A stretch of DNA of 56,642 bases from Acidobacteriota bacterium (lineage in GTDB: Bacteria; Acidobacteriota; Thermoanaerobaculia; UBA5066): assembly GCA_029567505.1 (NCBI GenBank), contig JAKPXO010000266.1, positions 1 through 56,642 of the forward strand, given 5' to 3'. The notes beneath the pieces are model-generated. The model was not told the DNA's origin. It did no database searches and saw only the letters and a program-made list of their open reading frames with translations. The position numbers were made by a program, and so were the translations under genes. This document shows, in pieces, positions 27,767 to 33,107 of this stretch. Position 1 is the stretch's first letter. The number at the start of each line of letters is the position of its first letter.

Positions 27767-28327
27767 TCAGCGCGTCGGGAAAGCGGCGCGAATCGTCCGC
27801 TCCTCCTCTCCGGTCATCCGGGGGGCCCCCTTGCGGAGAAGGCGGACGAAGTGATCGACCTCCTCGTCCTTCGACGGGAAGCCGACGTTCGTTCCGGGCC
27901 CGGCCACGTTCGACGTCGCGATCGGCTGCCGGGTCCGCGCGTCCAGGACGGCGACGAAGGGGAGGCCGGCGTCGCTCCCCGCGAGCGAGTCGAGGAGCGT
28001 CTCCGCCCCCGCGTTCTCCGTCTCCTTCCGTTCGCCGCGCTCGAAGACCGTCAGCTCGGTCCGGACGTAATGCCGGCTCACGACCGCCGCGACATCCGGC
28101 GTCGCGAGGACCGCCTCGAGCCTCCGGCACCAGCCGCACCACGACGCGTGGAAGAGGACGAGGACGTTCTTCTTCTCCCCTCGGGCGGCCTTCGCGGCAG
28201 CGGCGAGGACCGCCTCGGCGGGCGGTGCGGCCGGGACCACGGCGGCTGCCGGCGCGGCGACGGCCACCGGCGAGGCGAGACAGCCCGCCACGATGAAGGC
28301 AGCGACGATGAGACGGCGGCTCGACAT
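27767..28327 (-). CDS. Secreted thioredoxin-like protein
   Basis: The 186 residues begin with a signal peptide (cleavage near AVAA, about residue 25). The thioredoxin fold follows, with active site FHASWCGWCRRLE (Cys at about 64 and 67) and the cis-Pro segment GLPFVAVLD. It is probably a periplasmic thiol reductant or oxidant of the DsbD-C/SoxW type. It lies 57 bp downstream of the toxin-immunity pair on the same strand, so it may be transcribed with it, but no functional link is shown. Confidence 0.82.
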   Translation of the reverse strand: MSSRRLIVAAFIVAGCLASPVAVAAPAAAVVPAAPPAEAVLAAAAKAARGEKKNVLVLFHASWCGWCRRLEAVLATPDVAAVVSRHYVRTELTVFERGERKETENAGAETLLDSLAGSDAGLPFVAVLDARTRQPIATSNVAGPGTNVGFPSKDEEVDHFVRLLRKGAPRMTGEEERTIRAAFPTR

Positions 28328-28383: not shown

Positions 28384-28707
28384 CTACTCGCCGGCGAGGA
28401 TCCGGAGGACTCGCTCGGCCTCGGCGGCCGTCGAAGGCCTCCAGCCGGTTCCGAACCCGGCCCCGAGGAGCTTCCGGAGATCGCGCACCTCCATCCCCTC
28501 GAGGGCGGCCTGGAGCTTCTTCGCCTCGGGCGCGACGTTCCGCTTCTCGTCGTCCGCCGCATCGCGGCGGAAGGCGCGCGCGGCGTCCTCGGAGTCGGCG
28601 TACTCGGTCGTCCAGTCTTCGTGGAGGTAGCCGCGGAGCGCGTCGCGCAGCGCGGGATAGGCGCGGACGTCGACCGTCGCGGGCGCCTTCTTCGTCGTCG
28701 CCGTCAT
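28384..28707 (-). CDS. CdiI-type immunity protein
   Basis: This is a 107-residue soluble protein with no signal peptide. Its core YPALRDALRGYLHEDWTTEY followed by A..AF, a helical middle and TGWRPSTAAEAERVL matches the pattern I know for 'contact-dependent growth inhibition system immunity protein' (CdiI_2-like). Its ATG overlaps the stop of the upstream RNase-like toxin gene by 4 bp (ATGA), the usual toxin-then-immunity order. It should bind and neutralise that toxin in the cytosol. Function comes from family and context; no binding residues are identified. Confidence 0.78.
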   Translation of the reverse strand: MTATTKKAPATVDVRAYPALRDALRGYLHEDWTTEYADSEDAARAFRRDAADDEKRNVAPEAKKLQAALEGMEVRDLRKLLGAGFGTGWRPSTAAEAERVLRILAGE

Positions 28708-29195
28708 CGGGAGGCCTCCGGATAAGCAGTCAGGACGTAGTAGATCTCGGCGTCGACGTTCCAGCGGAGGACGACGACGGCCCGCGTGCAGGGGACGGGC
28801 TCTTTCGCCCCGCGCCGGAGCGACCGACCGACGACCTTCCGACCGTCGCCGGGCCAGTCGATGACGAGGTTCGCGCGCGAGCCCTCGCGGTTCGTCCACC
28901 GCTCGATCCGCTTCCGGCTCCCGCGGATCGCGTCGGCGACGACCTCTTCCGCCGTCGCGCGGTCGGTGAAGGTCGAGGCCGCCGAGAGCCGTCGCTCGCG
29001 ACGGAGCCGCTCGCGGAGCTGGGCGTCGCTCTGGCCGACGTGCCGGGCGAGCGTGTGGCCGCCGCGCTTCTCGTCGCGGAGGAGGTCCCGCTTCTGCGCG
29101 CCGTCGGCAGGGGCCGTCGCGCCGAGCAGCGCGGCGAGGGCGAGGAGGACGGGGACGATCGGGCGGAGGCGGGACACGAGACGGCGGAGCACCAC
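28704..29195 (-). CDS. Secreted RNase A-like toxin (CdiA-CT RNase A-type domain)
   Basis: This 163-residue protein has an N-terminal signal sequence (core about residues 12-28; cleavage near DGA, about 33) and then only one small domain. The domain begins GGHTLARHVGQSD and ends YYVLTAYPEASR, the two ends of the bacterial CdiA-CT RNase A family. His52, Arg63, Thr156 and Tyr158 reproduce the spacing of the His/Arg/Thr-x-Tyr active site that I recall for the Yersinia kristensenii CdiA toxin. No delivery domain (filamentous haemagglutinin, Rhs, PAAR, LXG) is attached. The start is GTG 29195, with GTG 29192 or 29177 possible. The immunity gene overlaps its stop. Confidence 0.8.
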   Translation of the reverse strand: MVLRRLVSRLRPIVPVLLALAALLGATAPADGAQKRDLLRDEKRGGHTLARHVGQSDAQLRERLRRERRLSAASTFTDRATAEEVVADAIRGSRKRIERWTNREGSRANLVIDWPGDGRKVVGRSLRRGAKEPVPCTRAVVVLRWNVDAEIYYVLTAYPEASR

Positions 29196-29274: not shown

Positions 29275-29327
29275 CTGAACGCCCTCGCGGCAGGCCTCCG
29301 CGCCGCGAGCTGCCCGGTCGCGTTCAG
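29275..29327 (-). terminator. Nested inverted repeat after the wHTH/WD40 regulator gene
   Basis: An outer 8-bp pair (29275-29282 with 29320-29327) encloses an inner 8-bp pair (29284-29291 with 29302-29309). The stop codon of the regulator (29324-29326) lies in the outer arm. It should end the regulator transcript before the toxin gene, which reads in the same direction. Confidence 0.5.
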
Positions 29328-31750
29328 CGGGGCGGAGCGAGATCGAGAGCGCGAGTCAGGAGCGGCGGCCCGGCGAGCTGCCCCGCGTCGAACCGGAGGA
29401 GCTCGCCGTCGACCGTGCCGGCCCAGAGGGTGCCGTCGGGCAGGAGCGTCGCGGTCTGAAGGCCGGCCCCCGTCCGGCGGCGCGACCAGGCCCTGTAGGT
29501 GACCGTCCGGCGTCCCGCCGCGTCGGGGAGCGGGGCCGAGAACGAGTACCGCGAGACTCCGTCGAGCCCGACGACGAGGACGTCGTCCTCTCCCGGCACC
29601 GGCACGACCCACATCCCGTCGAGGCCTGCCGCGTCGAGCGGGGAGAGCGTGCCCGAGGCGAGGTCGAAGAGGTGGAGGCTCGACGGCTCGATGCCCGCCG
29701 CGACGTAGAGCCCGAGCCTCGGCACCGGCGCGAGCCGGTAGACCGCCCGCGACGGCACAGGGTGCTCCTTCACGCTCCACCGACCTTCGCGCGCCGTCAG
29801 CTCGAGGAGGCTCGAGCTCCAGGTCCCGACGAGGATGCGGAGGGACCCGGGCAGCGGCGCCACCGCGTGGAGCGAGACCTTCCGCCCGAGGAGCGAGGCG
29901 GCGTCGACGATCGCGACCGGATCGAGAGAGGGCCAGCGCCAGCGCCGCACCGTGCCGTCCGACGACGCTGTGACGAGCTCGCGCCCGTCCGGGCCATCGA
30001 CGACCGTCAGGTCGTTCACCAGGAAGTCGTGGGCCCGGGTCCTGAGCTTCAGCGAGGGTCCGGGAAGCCCCCAGAGGGCGACCGTCTTGTCGTCGGACGA
30101 GGTGGCGAGGAGGTCGCCGTCGCGCACCATCGAGGGGATCCCGTCCGTATGCGCGCTCGCCCGGAGAATCGCGAGGCTCGCGGTGTCGAGCGACCAGAGC
30201 TCGCCGTCCCGGCCGCCGGCGAAGACGGTCATCCCCGCGGCGTCGTGCTCGGCGGACCAGAGCGGGCGTCCTCCGGCCGGCACTCGCGCCGTCGGCGTGA
30301 TCCCCGCGTAGGAGACGACCGCGAGGCGCTGCCGGCGCGGAACCAGGGCGAGAATCGCGTCCGAGTCGACGTGGAGCCCCCCTCCCGGCGAGACGGGGGC
30401 GAGGATCGCGGCCGGCTCCTCGTCGCTGCGGTAGGCCGTGATCCCTTCGAGACCGGAGGCGAGAAGCGTCGGGGCGTCGCCGACCCAGGCGAGGCCGTAG
30501 GTCCATCCGCGCCGCGGGAGAGACTTCGGAGCGAGCCCGTCGCCTGCCGAGAAGACGGCGACGAAGTCGAACGGCCCGCCGACCGCGACCCGTCCGAGGG
30601 CATCGTCGACCGCCAGGGCCGACACGCGCTGCTCCGCGAAGGGCGTCACGAAGAGGGCGTTCCCCTCCGGCAGGTCGAACGCGCGGACCGGTCCTCCTCC
30701 CCCCTGGGCCAGGGCGACGAGCCGTTCGCCGACGTCGAGGACTTCTCCCTCCACGAACGGCAGATTCAGCCGAAGCCGGCGAGACCAGCCCGAGCCCCCC
30801 CTCTCGAAGACCTCGAGCGCCTGGTCGCCGCGGACCGCGAGGTAGCGCCCGGAGCGCGAGCAGCGGACCCGGCCGGGACGGGGGCCGGGAGCGTCCGGGG
30901 GGAGGAGCCCGAGGTCGGCCTCCTCCGGCTTCGTCGGATGCCTCGCCACCACACGACGCCCCCGCACGAGCAGGACCCGCCCACCGCCGAGGGGCTCGGC
31001 GAGGACTTCGTCCCGCTCGAGGGGAACCCGGACGGCCGGGTGCGCCCCGTCCGCCGGAAGGAGGTCGTAGGCCGAACGAGCGGAGAGGACGATCGTCCCG
31101 TCGAGGGATCCGAGGACGGACTGCGCGTCGGGAGGGACGGCAATCTCCCGCGTGAGCGAGAGCAGGGGCTCGACTCCGGCGGCGGCGCCCTGAGGTCCCC
31201 CGCGCGCCGGGCTCCGGAGAAGGATGGACGCGATCGCGGCCGCCGCGAGCGTCCCGGCCACGAGGACGCCGAGGAGGGACGCCGAAGGGCGCCTCGCGGA
31301 CGCGGCCGGAGGGTCGGGAGAGGCTCCGGAAAGCGGTTCCGCGGCCTCGTCGGTCTCCTCCGGCCCGGTTGACGGCAACGGGACCGGGGAGGGCGGTGCC
31401 TCCGGTCCTCCGGCTTCGGCCGAAGTGACGGGCAGGTTCAGCCGGTATCCGAATCTCGGGACCGTCTCCAGCATCCCCGTCCCCTCCGCCTCTCCCAGGG
31501 CTTTCCGGACGAGGAAGACGGCCTGCGTCAGAGAGGCGTCCGTCACCACGGTGCTCGGCCAGACGGCGGCGAGGATCTCCTCCCGCGGGATCGCGCGCCC
31601 GGCGTTCCGGGCGAGGTGCACGAGGACGTCGAAGGCCTTCGGCGTCAGCGGAACAGGCAGTCCGTCCTTCAGGAGGAGACGGGCCCGCGCATCCAGGCGA
31701 AACCCTCCGAAATCCCATAACCATCTGTTTTCGCGAGGGTTATCCGACAT
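29324..31750 (-). CDS. Membrane one-component regulator: winged helix, TM, WD40-type propeller
   Basis: This 808-residue CadC/ToxR-like protein has a cytosolic OmpR-type winged-helix DNA-binding domain (10-106; FRLDARARLLLKDG, LTPKAFDVL, VPRFGYRL). An acidic/Pro-rich linker leads to a single membrane helix (157-178). The periplasmic part (about 190-808) has repeated blade-like units, including two clear WD-type ones (SSDDKTVALWGL, ASSDGTVRRWRW). It should sense a periplasmic ligand or protein and control transcription directly. ATG 31750 starts the winged helix; longer upstream frames are rejected. It is divergent from two secreted paralogues, its likely targets, with only 85 bp between starts. 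Confidence 0.85.
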   Translation of the reverse strand: MSDNPRENRWLWDFGGFRLDARARLLLKDGLPVPLTPKAFDVLVHLARNAGRAIPREEILAAVWPSTVVTDASLTQAVFLVRKALGEAEGTGMLETVPRFGYRLNLPVTSAEAGGPEAPPSPVPLPSTGPEETDEAAEPLSGASPDPPAASARRPSASLLGVLVAGTLAAAAIASILLRSPARGGPQGAAAGVEPLLSLTREIAVPPDAQSVLGSLDGTIVLSARSAYDLLPADGAHPAVRVPLERDEVLAEPLGGGRVLLVRGRRVVARHPTKPEEADLGLLPPDAPGPRPGRVRCSRSGRYLAVRGDQALEVFERGGSGWSRRLRLNLPFVEGEVLDVGERLVALAQGGGGPVRAFDLPEGNALFVTPFAEQRVSALAVDDALGRVAVGGPFDFVAVFSAGDGLAPKSLPRRGWTYGLAWVGDAPTLLASGLEGITAYRSDEEPAAILAPVSPGGGLHVDSDAILALVPRRQRLAVVSYAGITPTARVPAGGRPLWSAEHDAAGMTVFAGGRDGELWSLDTASLAILRASAHTDGIPSMVRDGDLLATSSDDKTVALWGLPGPSLKLRTRAHDFLVNDLTVVDGPDGRELVTASSDGTVRRWRWPSLDPVAIVDAASLLGRKVSLHAVAPLPGSLRILVGTWSSSLLELTAREGRWSVKEHPVPSRAVYRLAPVPRLGLYVAAGIEPSSLHLFDLASGTLSPLDAAGLDGMWVVPVPGEDDVLVVGLDGVSRYSFSAPLPDAAGRRTVTYRAWSRRRTGAGLQTATLLPDGTLWAGTVDGELLRFDAGQLAGPPLLTRALDLAPPR

Positions 31751-31764
31751 CACAAAATCCTGTG
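31717..31764. promoter_or_regulatory. Candidate operator region between the regulator and secreted-protein genes
   Basis: An A+T-richer patch in otherwise G+C-rich DNA holds ATAACC (31717-31722) facing GGTTAT (31738-31743) and, next to it, CACA (31751-31754) facing TGTG (31761-31764). Both overlap or touch the regulator start. They are possible binding sites for the winged-helix regulator or for autoregulation; this is weak, pattern-only evidence. Confidence 0.25.
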
Positions 31765-31835
31765 AGGCGATCCTAGCCGAAAATTGATCGGTCCCCGAGG
31801 AACTCGTGCGCGTCCCGACCGTACGTTCGGGCGCC

Positions 31836-33107
31836 ATGAGACGAACACTCAGAACGCGACCGACCTTCCTCGGCGCGACCCTCGCGGGAGCGGCCCTCGC
31901 CGTCGCTCTACCGTCGGCCGCCGCCAACGTCCTTCAGAACGGCTCCTTCGCCACCGGGCTCAGTGGCTGGAAGATGACCGCCCCGGCGTCCTGGGAAGCG
32001 GAGGGGGCGGCCGGGCCCGGCTCGGGGTCGGCGCGCCTGGGGGGGAACCCCGGTATCGTCGGCGCCCTCTCGCTCTCTCAGTGCGCCGCCGTCACCCCCG
32101 GCACCGCCTACGACCTCGGCGCGACCGCGCTTCTCCCCCACTCGCCGGAAGCGCAAGGCGGCATTTCCATCCGCCTCGTCTGGCACTCGTGGCCCGGCTG
32201 CGAGGGGGCGACCCTCGGTCTCGCCCCGGCCCTCGACTTCCCGCACGTGGCCCCGGCCGGCTGGACCCGCAGGAGTCTCGAGAGGCTCCGTGCCCCGTAC
32301 GGCGCGGCGAGCGCCTCGCTCCTGGTCGTCCCCTGGTCCTCGGGCTCGGAGTCCGCGTTCTCCGCGTTCCTCGACGACGTGGAGCTCTCCCCTTCCTCGA
32401 TGTTCGAAACCCTCACGCTCCCGACGGCGGCCTCGGTGGACGGAGCGAACGGCGAGCGTTTCCAGACGACGCTCGTCCTGACGAACGTCGCGCTCTTCAC
32501 GCGGCGCGTCGACGTCACCCTTCGCTGCCCGTCGAGCCAGCCCTGCGGGACCTCGGCGGTGAGCCTCCAGCTCGCGCCGGGGGAGACGCGCGTCTTCGCC
32601 GATCTCCTCCTCGACGTCTTCGGGAAGCGGAACGGCGCCGGCGCAGTCGAGGTGACCTACGAGGCGACTCCCGGTCCGATCGTCGTGTCGGCGCGGGCGG
32701 CGACCGTCCACGCGGAGCGGCCCGGCAACGGGATGGCTCTGCCGATCCTTCCGGCCTCGGCGGCCCGCAACGCGGCGACGTTCTTCGGCCTGACGGACGG
32801 CCGGGCCGGTGCGGGCGGGACGCGCGTGAACGCCGGCGTCTACAACCCGTCGGATACCACCGTCTTCGTCGTCTTCTCGGTCCACGACGAGAACGGCGAC
32901 GTGAGGAACACGGTCTCCCGATGGATCGAACGCCGGGAGTGGGCCCAGATCGACGACCTCTTCTCCCGGGCCGGTCTCGGGCCGGCCACTCCGGGCGCCT
33001 ACGTGACGTTCCAGGCCGAAGCGCCCGACTTCCCCTTCCTCATCTCCATCGACAACCGCTCGGGCGACCCGACGTTCCTCGAGCCCACGGAGAGCTTCCT
33101 GCCATGA
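31836..33107 (+). CDS. Secreted protein with carbohydrate-binding-like N-terminal domain (paralogue A)
   Basis: The 423-residue protein has a signal peptide (cleavage near SAAA, about residue 29). The first domain (about 30-185) starts NVLQNGSFATGLSGWK and ends FLDDVELS, the pattern of CBM/discoidin-like jelly rolls, with a Cys pair (SQC and WPGC). The second domain (about 190-423) has LPTAASVDGANGERFQTTLVLTN and RVNAGVYNPSDT, a type common in secreted Acidobacteriota proteins. ATG 31836 is favoured because the signal peptide begins there. It is followed with ATGA overlap by a paralogue. Function is unknown; surface or extracellular binding is inferred. Confidence 0.75.
   Translation: MRRTLRTRPTFLGATLAGAALAVALPSAAANVLQNGSFATGLSGWKMTAPASWEAEGAAGPGSGSARLGGNPGIVGALSLSQCAAVTPGTAYDLGATALLPHSPEAQGGISIRLVWHSWPGCEGATLGLAPALDFPHVAPAGWTRRSLERLRAPYGAASASLLVVPWSSGSESAFSAFLDDVELSPSSMFETLTLPTAASVDGANGERFQTTLVLTNVALFTRRVDVTLRCPSSQPCGTSAVSLQLAPGETRVFADLLLDVFGKRNGAGAVEVTYEATPGPIVVSARAATVHAERPGNGMALPILPASAARNAATFFGLTDGRAGAGGTRVNAGVYNPSDTTVFVVFSVHDENGDVRNTVSRWIERREWAQIDDLFSRAGLGPATPGAYVTFQAEAPDFPFLISIDNRSGDPTFLEPTESFLP

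What the first reader, a model, noticed from the sequence alone, without database searches (positions are those of the whole stretch)
28384..29195. Stand-alone secreted RNase A-fold toxin with overlapping CdiI-type immunity gene
The sequence shows a 163-residue protein with a Sec-type signal and a single small domain whose ends (GGHTLARHVGQSD and VLTAYPE) match bacterial CdiA-CT RNase A domains. His52, Arg63, Thr156 and Tyr158 keep the spacing of the active site I recall for the Y. kristensenii toxin (His175/Arg186/Thr276/Tyr278). The family normally rides on huge delivery proteins; here there is none, and the immunity protein lacks a signal. That parallels barnase/barstar, with a secreted RNase and a cytosolic inhibitor, but in an RNase A fold. 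It may be a minimal contact-independent antibacterial or RNA-scavenging system. Independent evolution of the barnase-barstar plan is inference.
Basis: partly seen in the sequence, partly recalled or inferred. Interest (0 to 1): 0.82.

Follow-up and report, generated by a model that had tools for sequence, protein, structure and literature searches.

The report
Exported RNase A-fold toxin with immunity
A soil-type bacterium (Acidobacteriota) carries a two-gene unit, an exported RNA-cutting protein shaped like our own RNase A and a small inhibitor that stays inside the cell; the same unit occurs across the phylum and beyond without the giant delivery proteins that usually carry this toxin, so how it reaches its targets is an open, testable question.

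Summary
On the minus strand, 29195-28704 encodes a 163-residue protein with an export-signal-like N-terminus and one bacterial RNase A domain (PF18431, 108 bits; AlphaFold model matches CdiA-CT Ykris 5e3e at Z 17.0, 1.8 A). His52/Arg63/Thr156/Tyr158 align exactly with its published active site. The next gene (28707-28384) overlaps by ATGA, has no signal, and encodes a CdiI_2 immunity protein. It is not a lone oddity. In 31 of 31 related Acidobacteriota/Chloroflexota loci the toxin is short, has a hydrophobic N-terminus (20 with a lipobox-like Cys) and is followed by the immunity gene; no third gene recurs. These stand-alone toxins form one supported clade, apart from Rhs/CdiA-borne ones. Toxin and immunity co-occur in 16 genomes of 396 (toxin in 18, immunity in 19). 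Both genes are under purifying selection. One relative lacks the toxin gene at the orthologous site but keeps the immunity gene. Best reading: a stand-alone, Sec/lipoprotein-exported branch of the CDI RNase A toxin-immunity family, probably antagonistic. Catalysis, toxicity, neutralisation and delivery are untested. Stand-alone exported bacterial RNase A proteins have precedents (Ribocin; NCBIfam RNase_A_lipo), so this is a new variant of a known kind.

The parts
28704..29195 (-). Toxin gene: 163-aa exported bacterial RNase A-fold protein (signal-like segment about residues 1-32, domain 45-159; predicted catalytic H52, R63, T156, Y158)
29097..29195 (-). Signal-peptide-like N-terminus (Arg-rich n-region, hydrophobic core IVPVLLALAALL, ATA/PADGA cleavage-like site); no lipobox in this genus. 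The end point is approximate
   Evidence: (hydropathy heuristic, no dedicated predictor)
28719..29060 (-). PF18431 RNAse_A_bac domain
   Evidence: 108 bits
28384..28707 (-). Immunity gene: 107-aa all-helical CdiI_2-type protein, no signal
28704..28707 (-). ATGA overlap of toxin stop and immunity start (suggests translational coupling); exactly this overlap in 48 of 68 related loci
   Evidence: (sequence)

Best explanation
The pair is a stand-alone toxin-immunity unit. A Sec-type signal (or, in most relatives, a lipoprotein signal) exports an RNase with the bacterial RNase A fold out of the cytoplasm. The co-translated CdiI_2-type helical protein stays in the cytosol, where it should cap the active site of any toxin that folds inside before export or that comes back in from a sister cell. 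The exported enzyme most likely serves antagonism against neighbouring cells, cutting RNA once it reaches their cytosol. Shown here by sequence and structure prediction: the fold, the active-site set, the immunity family, co-conservation of the two genes, purifying selection, and absence of an attached delivery protein. Inferred: export, RNase activity, neutralisation, antagonistic purpose. Unknown: how the toxin leaves the producer and enters a target.
For: Domain and fold: PF18431 108 bits; model pLDDT about 98 over the domain, 5e3e_B Z 17.0, 1.8 A over 113 residues. Active site conserved 60/60 for H52, R63, T156. Immunity: CdiI_2; non-circular profile of 9 Acidobacteriota immunity proteins hits 5e3e_A at 8.3e-10; best structural match 5e3e_A, TM 0.65/0.69. 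Pairing: 31/31 stand-alone loci have the immunity gene downstream, 48 of 68 loci at exactly -4; genome-wide co-occurrence in 16 genomes, with toxin in 18 and immunity in 19 of 396; 10/10 pairs among close relatives. Export: all 31 have a hydrophobic N-terminal core (shuffle p<=0.05 each), 20 have a lipobox-like Cys (my count from the listings). Selection: dN/dS 0.21 and 0.08. Stand-alone clade 97/87 support. No third conserved neighbour in 32 loci. Immunity more divergent than toxin in 99% of 406 pairs, with co-divergence (Mantel r 0.63, 0/5000). Immunity kept without toxin: G073 at the orthologous site, flanks 73-78% identical; L068 has a truncated toxin with an intact immunity gene; G316 has two CdiI_2 genes beside an Rhs gene and no RNase A domain found.
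Against: No experiment. Signal assignment is heuristic. The orphan immunity of G073 is under weak constraint (dN/dS about 0.75), so it may be a decaying relic rather than selected protection. A two-gene secreted RNase with inhibitor would look the same if the role were RNA scavenging, as barnase is usually seen. The producer's own route from periplasm to outside is not identified; the genome has T6SS sheath genes, T2SS-type pseudopilins and Rhs proteins, none linked to the pair.
Confidence: 0.62

Rival explanations
1. Nutritional or housekeeping exported RNase with a safety inhibitor: the enzyme degrades environmental or periplasmic RNA for phosphate and nucleotides, and the immunity protein only protects the producer from mislocalised enzyme (strict barnase-barstar or vertebrate RNase A/RI plan).
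For: Signal and cytosolic inhibitor fit; the toxin is well conserved (mean 54% identity) and under purifying selection; no delivery gene.
Against: Sporadic distribution (17 of 396 genomes over the cut-off); inhibitor diverges much faster than the enzyme; orphan immunity genes exist; nearest relatives are competition toxins; most relatives look membrane-anchored, which suits scavenging less well.
Confidence: 0.22
2. Orphan cassette of a polymorphic toxin system: a spare toxin tip-immunity module waiting to recombine with an Rhs/CdiA protein elsewhere in the genome, with the upstream segment being incidental.
For: The genome has Rhs proteins; stand-alone cassettes are known for polymorphic toxins (PMC3482391).
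Against: Own start and hydrophobic export segment in 31/31 loci; a single supported stand-alone clade of 31 rows across two phyla; no neighbouring Rhs/CdiA gene recurs; the VPGGGLAAHE-like pretoxin motif of Rhs/CdiA forms is absent from the Acidobacteriota forms.
Confidence: 0.08
3. Lipoprotein toxin passed cell to cell through outer-membrane exchange or vesicles, as the SitA toxins of myxobacteria; the window's genus has secondarily lost the lipid anchor.
For: 20 of 31 relatives have a lipobox-like Cys after the hydrophobic core; SitA precedent with a downstream immunity gene and no export apparatus (PMC5562445).
Against: SitA N-terminal domains were reported only in Myxococcales with traAB (PMC5562445); traAB was not tested here; the window protein itself has no lipobox; the linkers here are short.
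Confidence: 0.2
4. Effector against eukaryotes (grazing protists), like Ribocin of P. aeruginosa, with the immunity protein for self-protection.
For: Ribocin is an exported stand-alone RNase A-fold protein that cuts eukaryotic rRNA (PMC13189344).
Against: Ribocin is reported to be highly divergent (15% identity to CdiA-CT Ykris) and not to cleave bacterial H69; the window pair is much nearer to the antibacterial Ykris pair and has a cognate immunity gene.
Confidence: 0.07

Closest known systems
CdiA-CT/CdiI of Yersinia kristensenii ATCC 33638 (PDB 5e3e)
   Same: RNase A-like fold (Z 17.0, 1.8 A), same His/Arg/Thr/Tyr set, homologous helical immunity protein directly downstream
   Different: The Ykris domain is the tip of a large exoprotein; here the domain is alone behind an export signal. 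The 2022 review PMC9086364, citing Batot 2017, says all family members known then had associated secretion systems
Ribocin RbcN (PA14_21120/PA3318), P. aeruginosa
   Same: Stand-alone bacterial RNase A-fold protein with a signal peptide (PMC13189344)
   Different: No annotated domain and 15% identity to CdiA-CT Ykris by the paper; no immunity gene reported in the passages read; acts on eukaryotic ribosomes
NCBIfam NF041883 RNase_A_lipo (RNase A-like domain-containing lipoprotein)
   Same: Same domain in a short lipoprotein, so exported stand-alone forms are already recognised in annotation
   Different: Window scores 58.8 bits against a cut-off of 200; best of the relatives tested 72.4
SitA/SitI lipoprotein toxins of myxobacteria
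   Same: Toxin exported as a lipoprotein with adjacent immunity gene and no dedicated export apparatus (PMC5562445)
   Different: SitA has a longer conserved N-terminal region and outer-membrane exchange by TraAB; the SitA toxin domains described there (WHH nuclease, tRNase, DNase) are other families
Barnase/barstar and vertebrate RNase A/ribonuclease inhibitor
   Same: Secreted RNase with a cytosolic inhibitor (general knowledge)
   Different: Inhibitors unrelated (CdiI_2 here); barnase has another fold; fold similarity to vertebrate RNase A is moderate (Z 4.5-5.2) and the catalytic residues differ

Membership tests
Bacterial RNase A superfamily (PF18431, CdiA-CT RNAse A domain) | Profile match above curated cut-off over the full domain | tested here: met
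   108.3 bits against 27, profile 1-113/113
Bacterial RNase A superfamily (PF18431, CdiA-CT RNAse A domain) | Fold of 5e3e_B | tested here: met
   Model pLDDT about 98 in domain; Z 17.0, rmsd 1.8, 113 aligned
Bacterial RNase A superfamily (PF18431, CdiA-CT RNAse A domain) | Active-site His175/Arg186/Thr276/Tyr278 equivalents | tested here: met
   H52/R63/T156/Y158 by alignment; conserved in 60 relatives
Bacterial RNase A superfamily (PF18431, CdiA-CT RNAse A domain) | Metal-independent RNase and cCMP hydrolysis activity | not testable with these tools
   Needs purified protein
CdiI_2 immunity family (PF18593) | Profile match above curated cut-off | tested here: met
   32.9 bits against 26.7
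CdiI_2 immunity family (PF18593) | Helical fold of 5e3e_A | tested here: met
   Best Foldseek hit, TM 0.65/0.69, prob 1.00, E 0.03; profile A2 hits 5e3e_A at 8.3e-10
CdiI_2 immunity family (PF18593) | Binds and neutralises the cognate toxin | not testable with these tools
CDI system (CdiB/CdiA/CdiI) | Toxin as C-terminal tip of a large two-partner-secretion exoprotein | tested here: not met
   163-aa ORF with its own start and stop; open frame only 166 codons
CDI system (CdiB/CdiA/CdiI) | TPS/CdiA elsewhere in the genome | tested here: inconclusive
   PF05860 none, but none of the control genomes rang either
NCBIfam RNase_A_lipo NF041883 | Score above curated cut-off 200 | tested here: not met
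   58.8 bits
SitA outer-membrane-exchange toxins | N-terminal lipobox | tested here: not met
   No Cys in the window protein's N-terminus; lipobox-like Cys in 20 of 31 relatives
SitA outer-membrane-exchange toxins | TraAB in the genome and the SitA N-terminal domain | not tested
   No family accession for TraA was at hand
Barnase-barstar type (secreted RNase with cytosolic inhibitor) | Export signal on RNase, none on inhibitor | tested here: met
   Hydropathy heuristic 2.98 against 0.37; dedicated predictor not available
Barnase-barstar type (secreted RNase with cytosolic inhibitor) | Inhibitor homologous to barstar | tested here: not met
   Only CdiI_2 in Pfam

The most novel reading that the evidence does not exclude
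Bacteria have a dedicated, long-lived secreted RNase A plus cytosolic inhibitor system, a counterpart of vertebrate RNase A and ribonuclease inhibitor, spread over Acidobacteriota and Chloroflexota as its own clade, with delivery that needs only Sec or lipoprotein export and no polymorphic-toxin carrier.
Probability: 0.35. Interest if true: 0.7.

Novelty: new variant of a known kind. Interest (0 to 1): 0.52.

Why it matters
The bacterial RNase A family was known as warheads on large delivery proteins. A stable clade of small exported versions, each with its immunity gene and no other partner, shows that the module works, or at least persists, without them. It offers a small genetic unit for asking how an exported RNase enters a target cell, and whether secreted RNases with cytosolic inhibitors serve competition or nutrition. 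It also gives Acidobacteriota, an abundant and poorly understood soil phylum, a plausible antagonism system.

Tried and rejected
The G065/L022 'hit' for PF18431 (24.8 bits, below cut-off) is a HisZ/HisRS-like protein in front of a HisG-like protein by inspection: false positive. The apparent second toxin in L027 was a spurious cluster join. The absence of the pair in same-genus G003 says nothing: its regulator gene ends at a contig edge. The exported CGWC thioredoxin and the WD40 regulator beside the pair are not functional partners as far as seen: in G006 and G008 they lie on other contigs, although the regulator precedes the pair in G007 too. Profile A4 against the PDB is partly circular because it contains near-copies of CdiI Ykris; the clean test is. 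Phage records: no match; plasmids: only distant (32-35%) Pantoea and Rhizobium matches. Literature searches for a described stand-alone RNase A toxin-immunity pair found none in the held library, apart from Ribocin; Batot 2017 and Cuthbert 2017 are not held. Complex prediction could not be run.

Full report
What is there. The minus strand of the window holds two overlapping genes. 29195-28704 encodes 163 residues from a GTG start; 28707-28384 encodes 107 residues from an ATG whose last two bases are the first two of the toxin stop (ATGA). The window is contig C365 of a 5.14 Mb, 96% complete genome whose named relatives are Acidobacteriota (Holophagales, Thermoanaerobaculia and others).

The toxin. 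PF18431 matches at 108 bits over its whole length. The single PDB match by sequence is CdiA-CT of Y. kristensenii, 5e3e_B, and the alignment places H52, R63, T156 and Y158 on the published His175, Arg186, Thr276 and Tyr278 (PMC9086364). An AlphaFold model built on 60 relatives has pLDDT near 98 over the domain and matches 5e3e_B at Z 17.0 and 1.8 A over 113 residues; vertebrate RNase A and angiogenin follow at Z 4.5-5.2. In the 60 relatives H47, H52, L60, R63, A82, G123 and T156 are invariant and Y158 is Y or F. The conserved H47 and G123 are not among the four published active-site residues and deserve a look.

The immunity protein. It passes the CdiI_2 cut-off modestly (32.9 against 26.7). 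A profile of nine Acidobacteriota homologues, free of close Ykris copies, finds 5e3e_A at 8e-10, and the predicted all-helical model has 5e3e_A as best match, TM 0.65/0.69. Its N-terminus is polar.

Export. The toxin N-terminus has RRLVSRLR followed by IVPVLLALAALL and a small-residue region. No dedicated predictor was available. By hydropathy, all 31 stand-alone relatives have such a core, each rarer than 5% of shuffles of its own N-terminus. By my reading of the listings, 20 of the 31 have a Cys in a lipobox-like setting (LAAC, LQAC, LVAC, LAGC, LGGC and the like), none followed by Asp. The window's genus has no such Cys. The four relatives from Dehalococcoidia and near them have a single hydrophobic segment and a Ser/Thr/Pro-rich linker instead. 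In Terriglobia-type relatives two cysteines, at positions 136 and 161, fall opposite each other in the last hairpin (strands 138-146 and 151-160; 7 loci), which would suit a disulphide in an oxidising compartment; this is inference.

The pair as a unit. A scan of 84,980 genomes kept 80 loci. A CdiI_2-type gene lies directly downstream in 71 with E <= 1e-9, and in all 31 stand-alone Acidobacteriota/Chloroflexota loci. The -4 overlap is exact in 48 of the 68 where a start was assigned. In two separate whole-genome searches over the same 396 Acidobacteriota, 18 have the toxin domain, 19 the immunity family, and 16 have both; among 101 nearer relatives 10 have both, and one (G073) only the immunity gene. 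In 32 stand-alone loci no other gene family recurs beyond a few sister loci. A maximum-likelihood tree groups the 31 sampled Acidobacteriota/Chloroflexota stand-alone rows in one clade (97/87), separate from the Rhs- and CdiA-borne toxins of Pseudomonas and Enterobacterales; the short cyanobacterial forms are another supported clade. The root is not inferred, so which form came first is open.

Selection and function. Between the window and the same-genus G001, dN/dS is 0.21 for the toxin domain and 0.08 for the immunity gene; against G002 0.24 and 0.18. Across 29 stand-alone pairs the immunity protein is more divergent than the toxin in 99% of comparisons (mean identity 32% against 54%), and the two distance matrices correlate (r 0.63, 0 of 5000 permutations). 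Shared descent alone could give the correlation. In genus g44, G091 has the pair, while G073 has collinear flanks (73-78% identical DNA) and the immunity gene, but about 0.54 kb less sequence exactly where the 0.5 kb toxin gene lies. Immunity without toxin is what antagonism predicts, though that copy is weakly constrained (dN/dS about 0.75). L068 has a toxin cut short before T156 with an intact immunity gene, and G316 has two CdiI_2 genes beside an Rhs gene and no RNase A domain found.

Delivery. The genome carries T6SS sheath genes, pseudopilins of the T2SS type and Rhs proteins elsewhere; none is linked to the pair. Sec export alone would place the protein in the periplasm. Release by vesicles, lysis or membrane exchange, and entry into a target, remain unknown.

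Against the known. Bacterial RNase A toxins, CdiI_2 immunity, stand-alone exported RNase A-fold proteins (Ribocin, PMC13189344; NF041883) and lipoprotein toxins with immunity (SitA, PMC5562445) are each known. What I did not find described is the combination: a conserved clade of small exported RNase A toxins, each with its CdiI_2 gene and nothing else. I file it as a member of the bacterial RNase A and CdiI_2 families, not as a CDI system, and as a new variant of a known kind.

Noticed in passing
L142:44-1864 (G441:C188): Phage portal protein (PF04860, 299 bits) with an RNase A-like toxin domain at its C-terminus (61.7 bits), and a 96-aa ORF of no known family overlapping it by ATGA: a portal-toxin fusion with a candidate immunity gene in an Acidobacteriota prophage or phage contig.
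   Followed up: partly
L140:4697-5944 (G316): Two tandem CdiI_2 genes downstream of an Rhs gene in a genome without a detected RNase A domain: orphan immunity genes.
   Followed up: partly
L141:4385-4723 (G073) against L016:3524-4365 (G091): Immunity gene kept at the orthologous site while the toxin gene is cleanly absent.
   Followed up: yes
L026, L030, L033, L035, L036, L038, L039 (toxin positions 136 and 161): Two cysteines facing each other in the last hairpin of the toxin, a likely disulphide found only in exported forms; CdiA-CT Ykris has none according to PMC9086364.
   Followed up: partly
29324-31927 (-): CadC/ToxR-like protein: N-terminal winged helix (Trans_reg_C) and C-terminal WD40 repeats, directly upstream of the toxin; the same order occurs in G007 (L018), a different genus.
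   Followed up: partly
27767-28327 (-): Thioredoxin-like protein with a CGWC motif and a hydrophobic N-terminus directly downstream of the immunity gene; neighbour only within the genus.
   Followed up: partly
L052-L062, L065, L066, L069, L079, L080, L088: Filamentous cyanobacteria (Microcoleus, Tychonema, Lyngbya) carry a short N-terminally hydrophobic RNase A toxin of their own clade, with a PGGGLxxHE-like linker and a CdiI_2 gene at exactly -4.
   Followed up: partly
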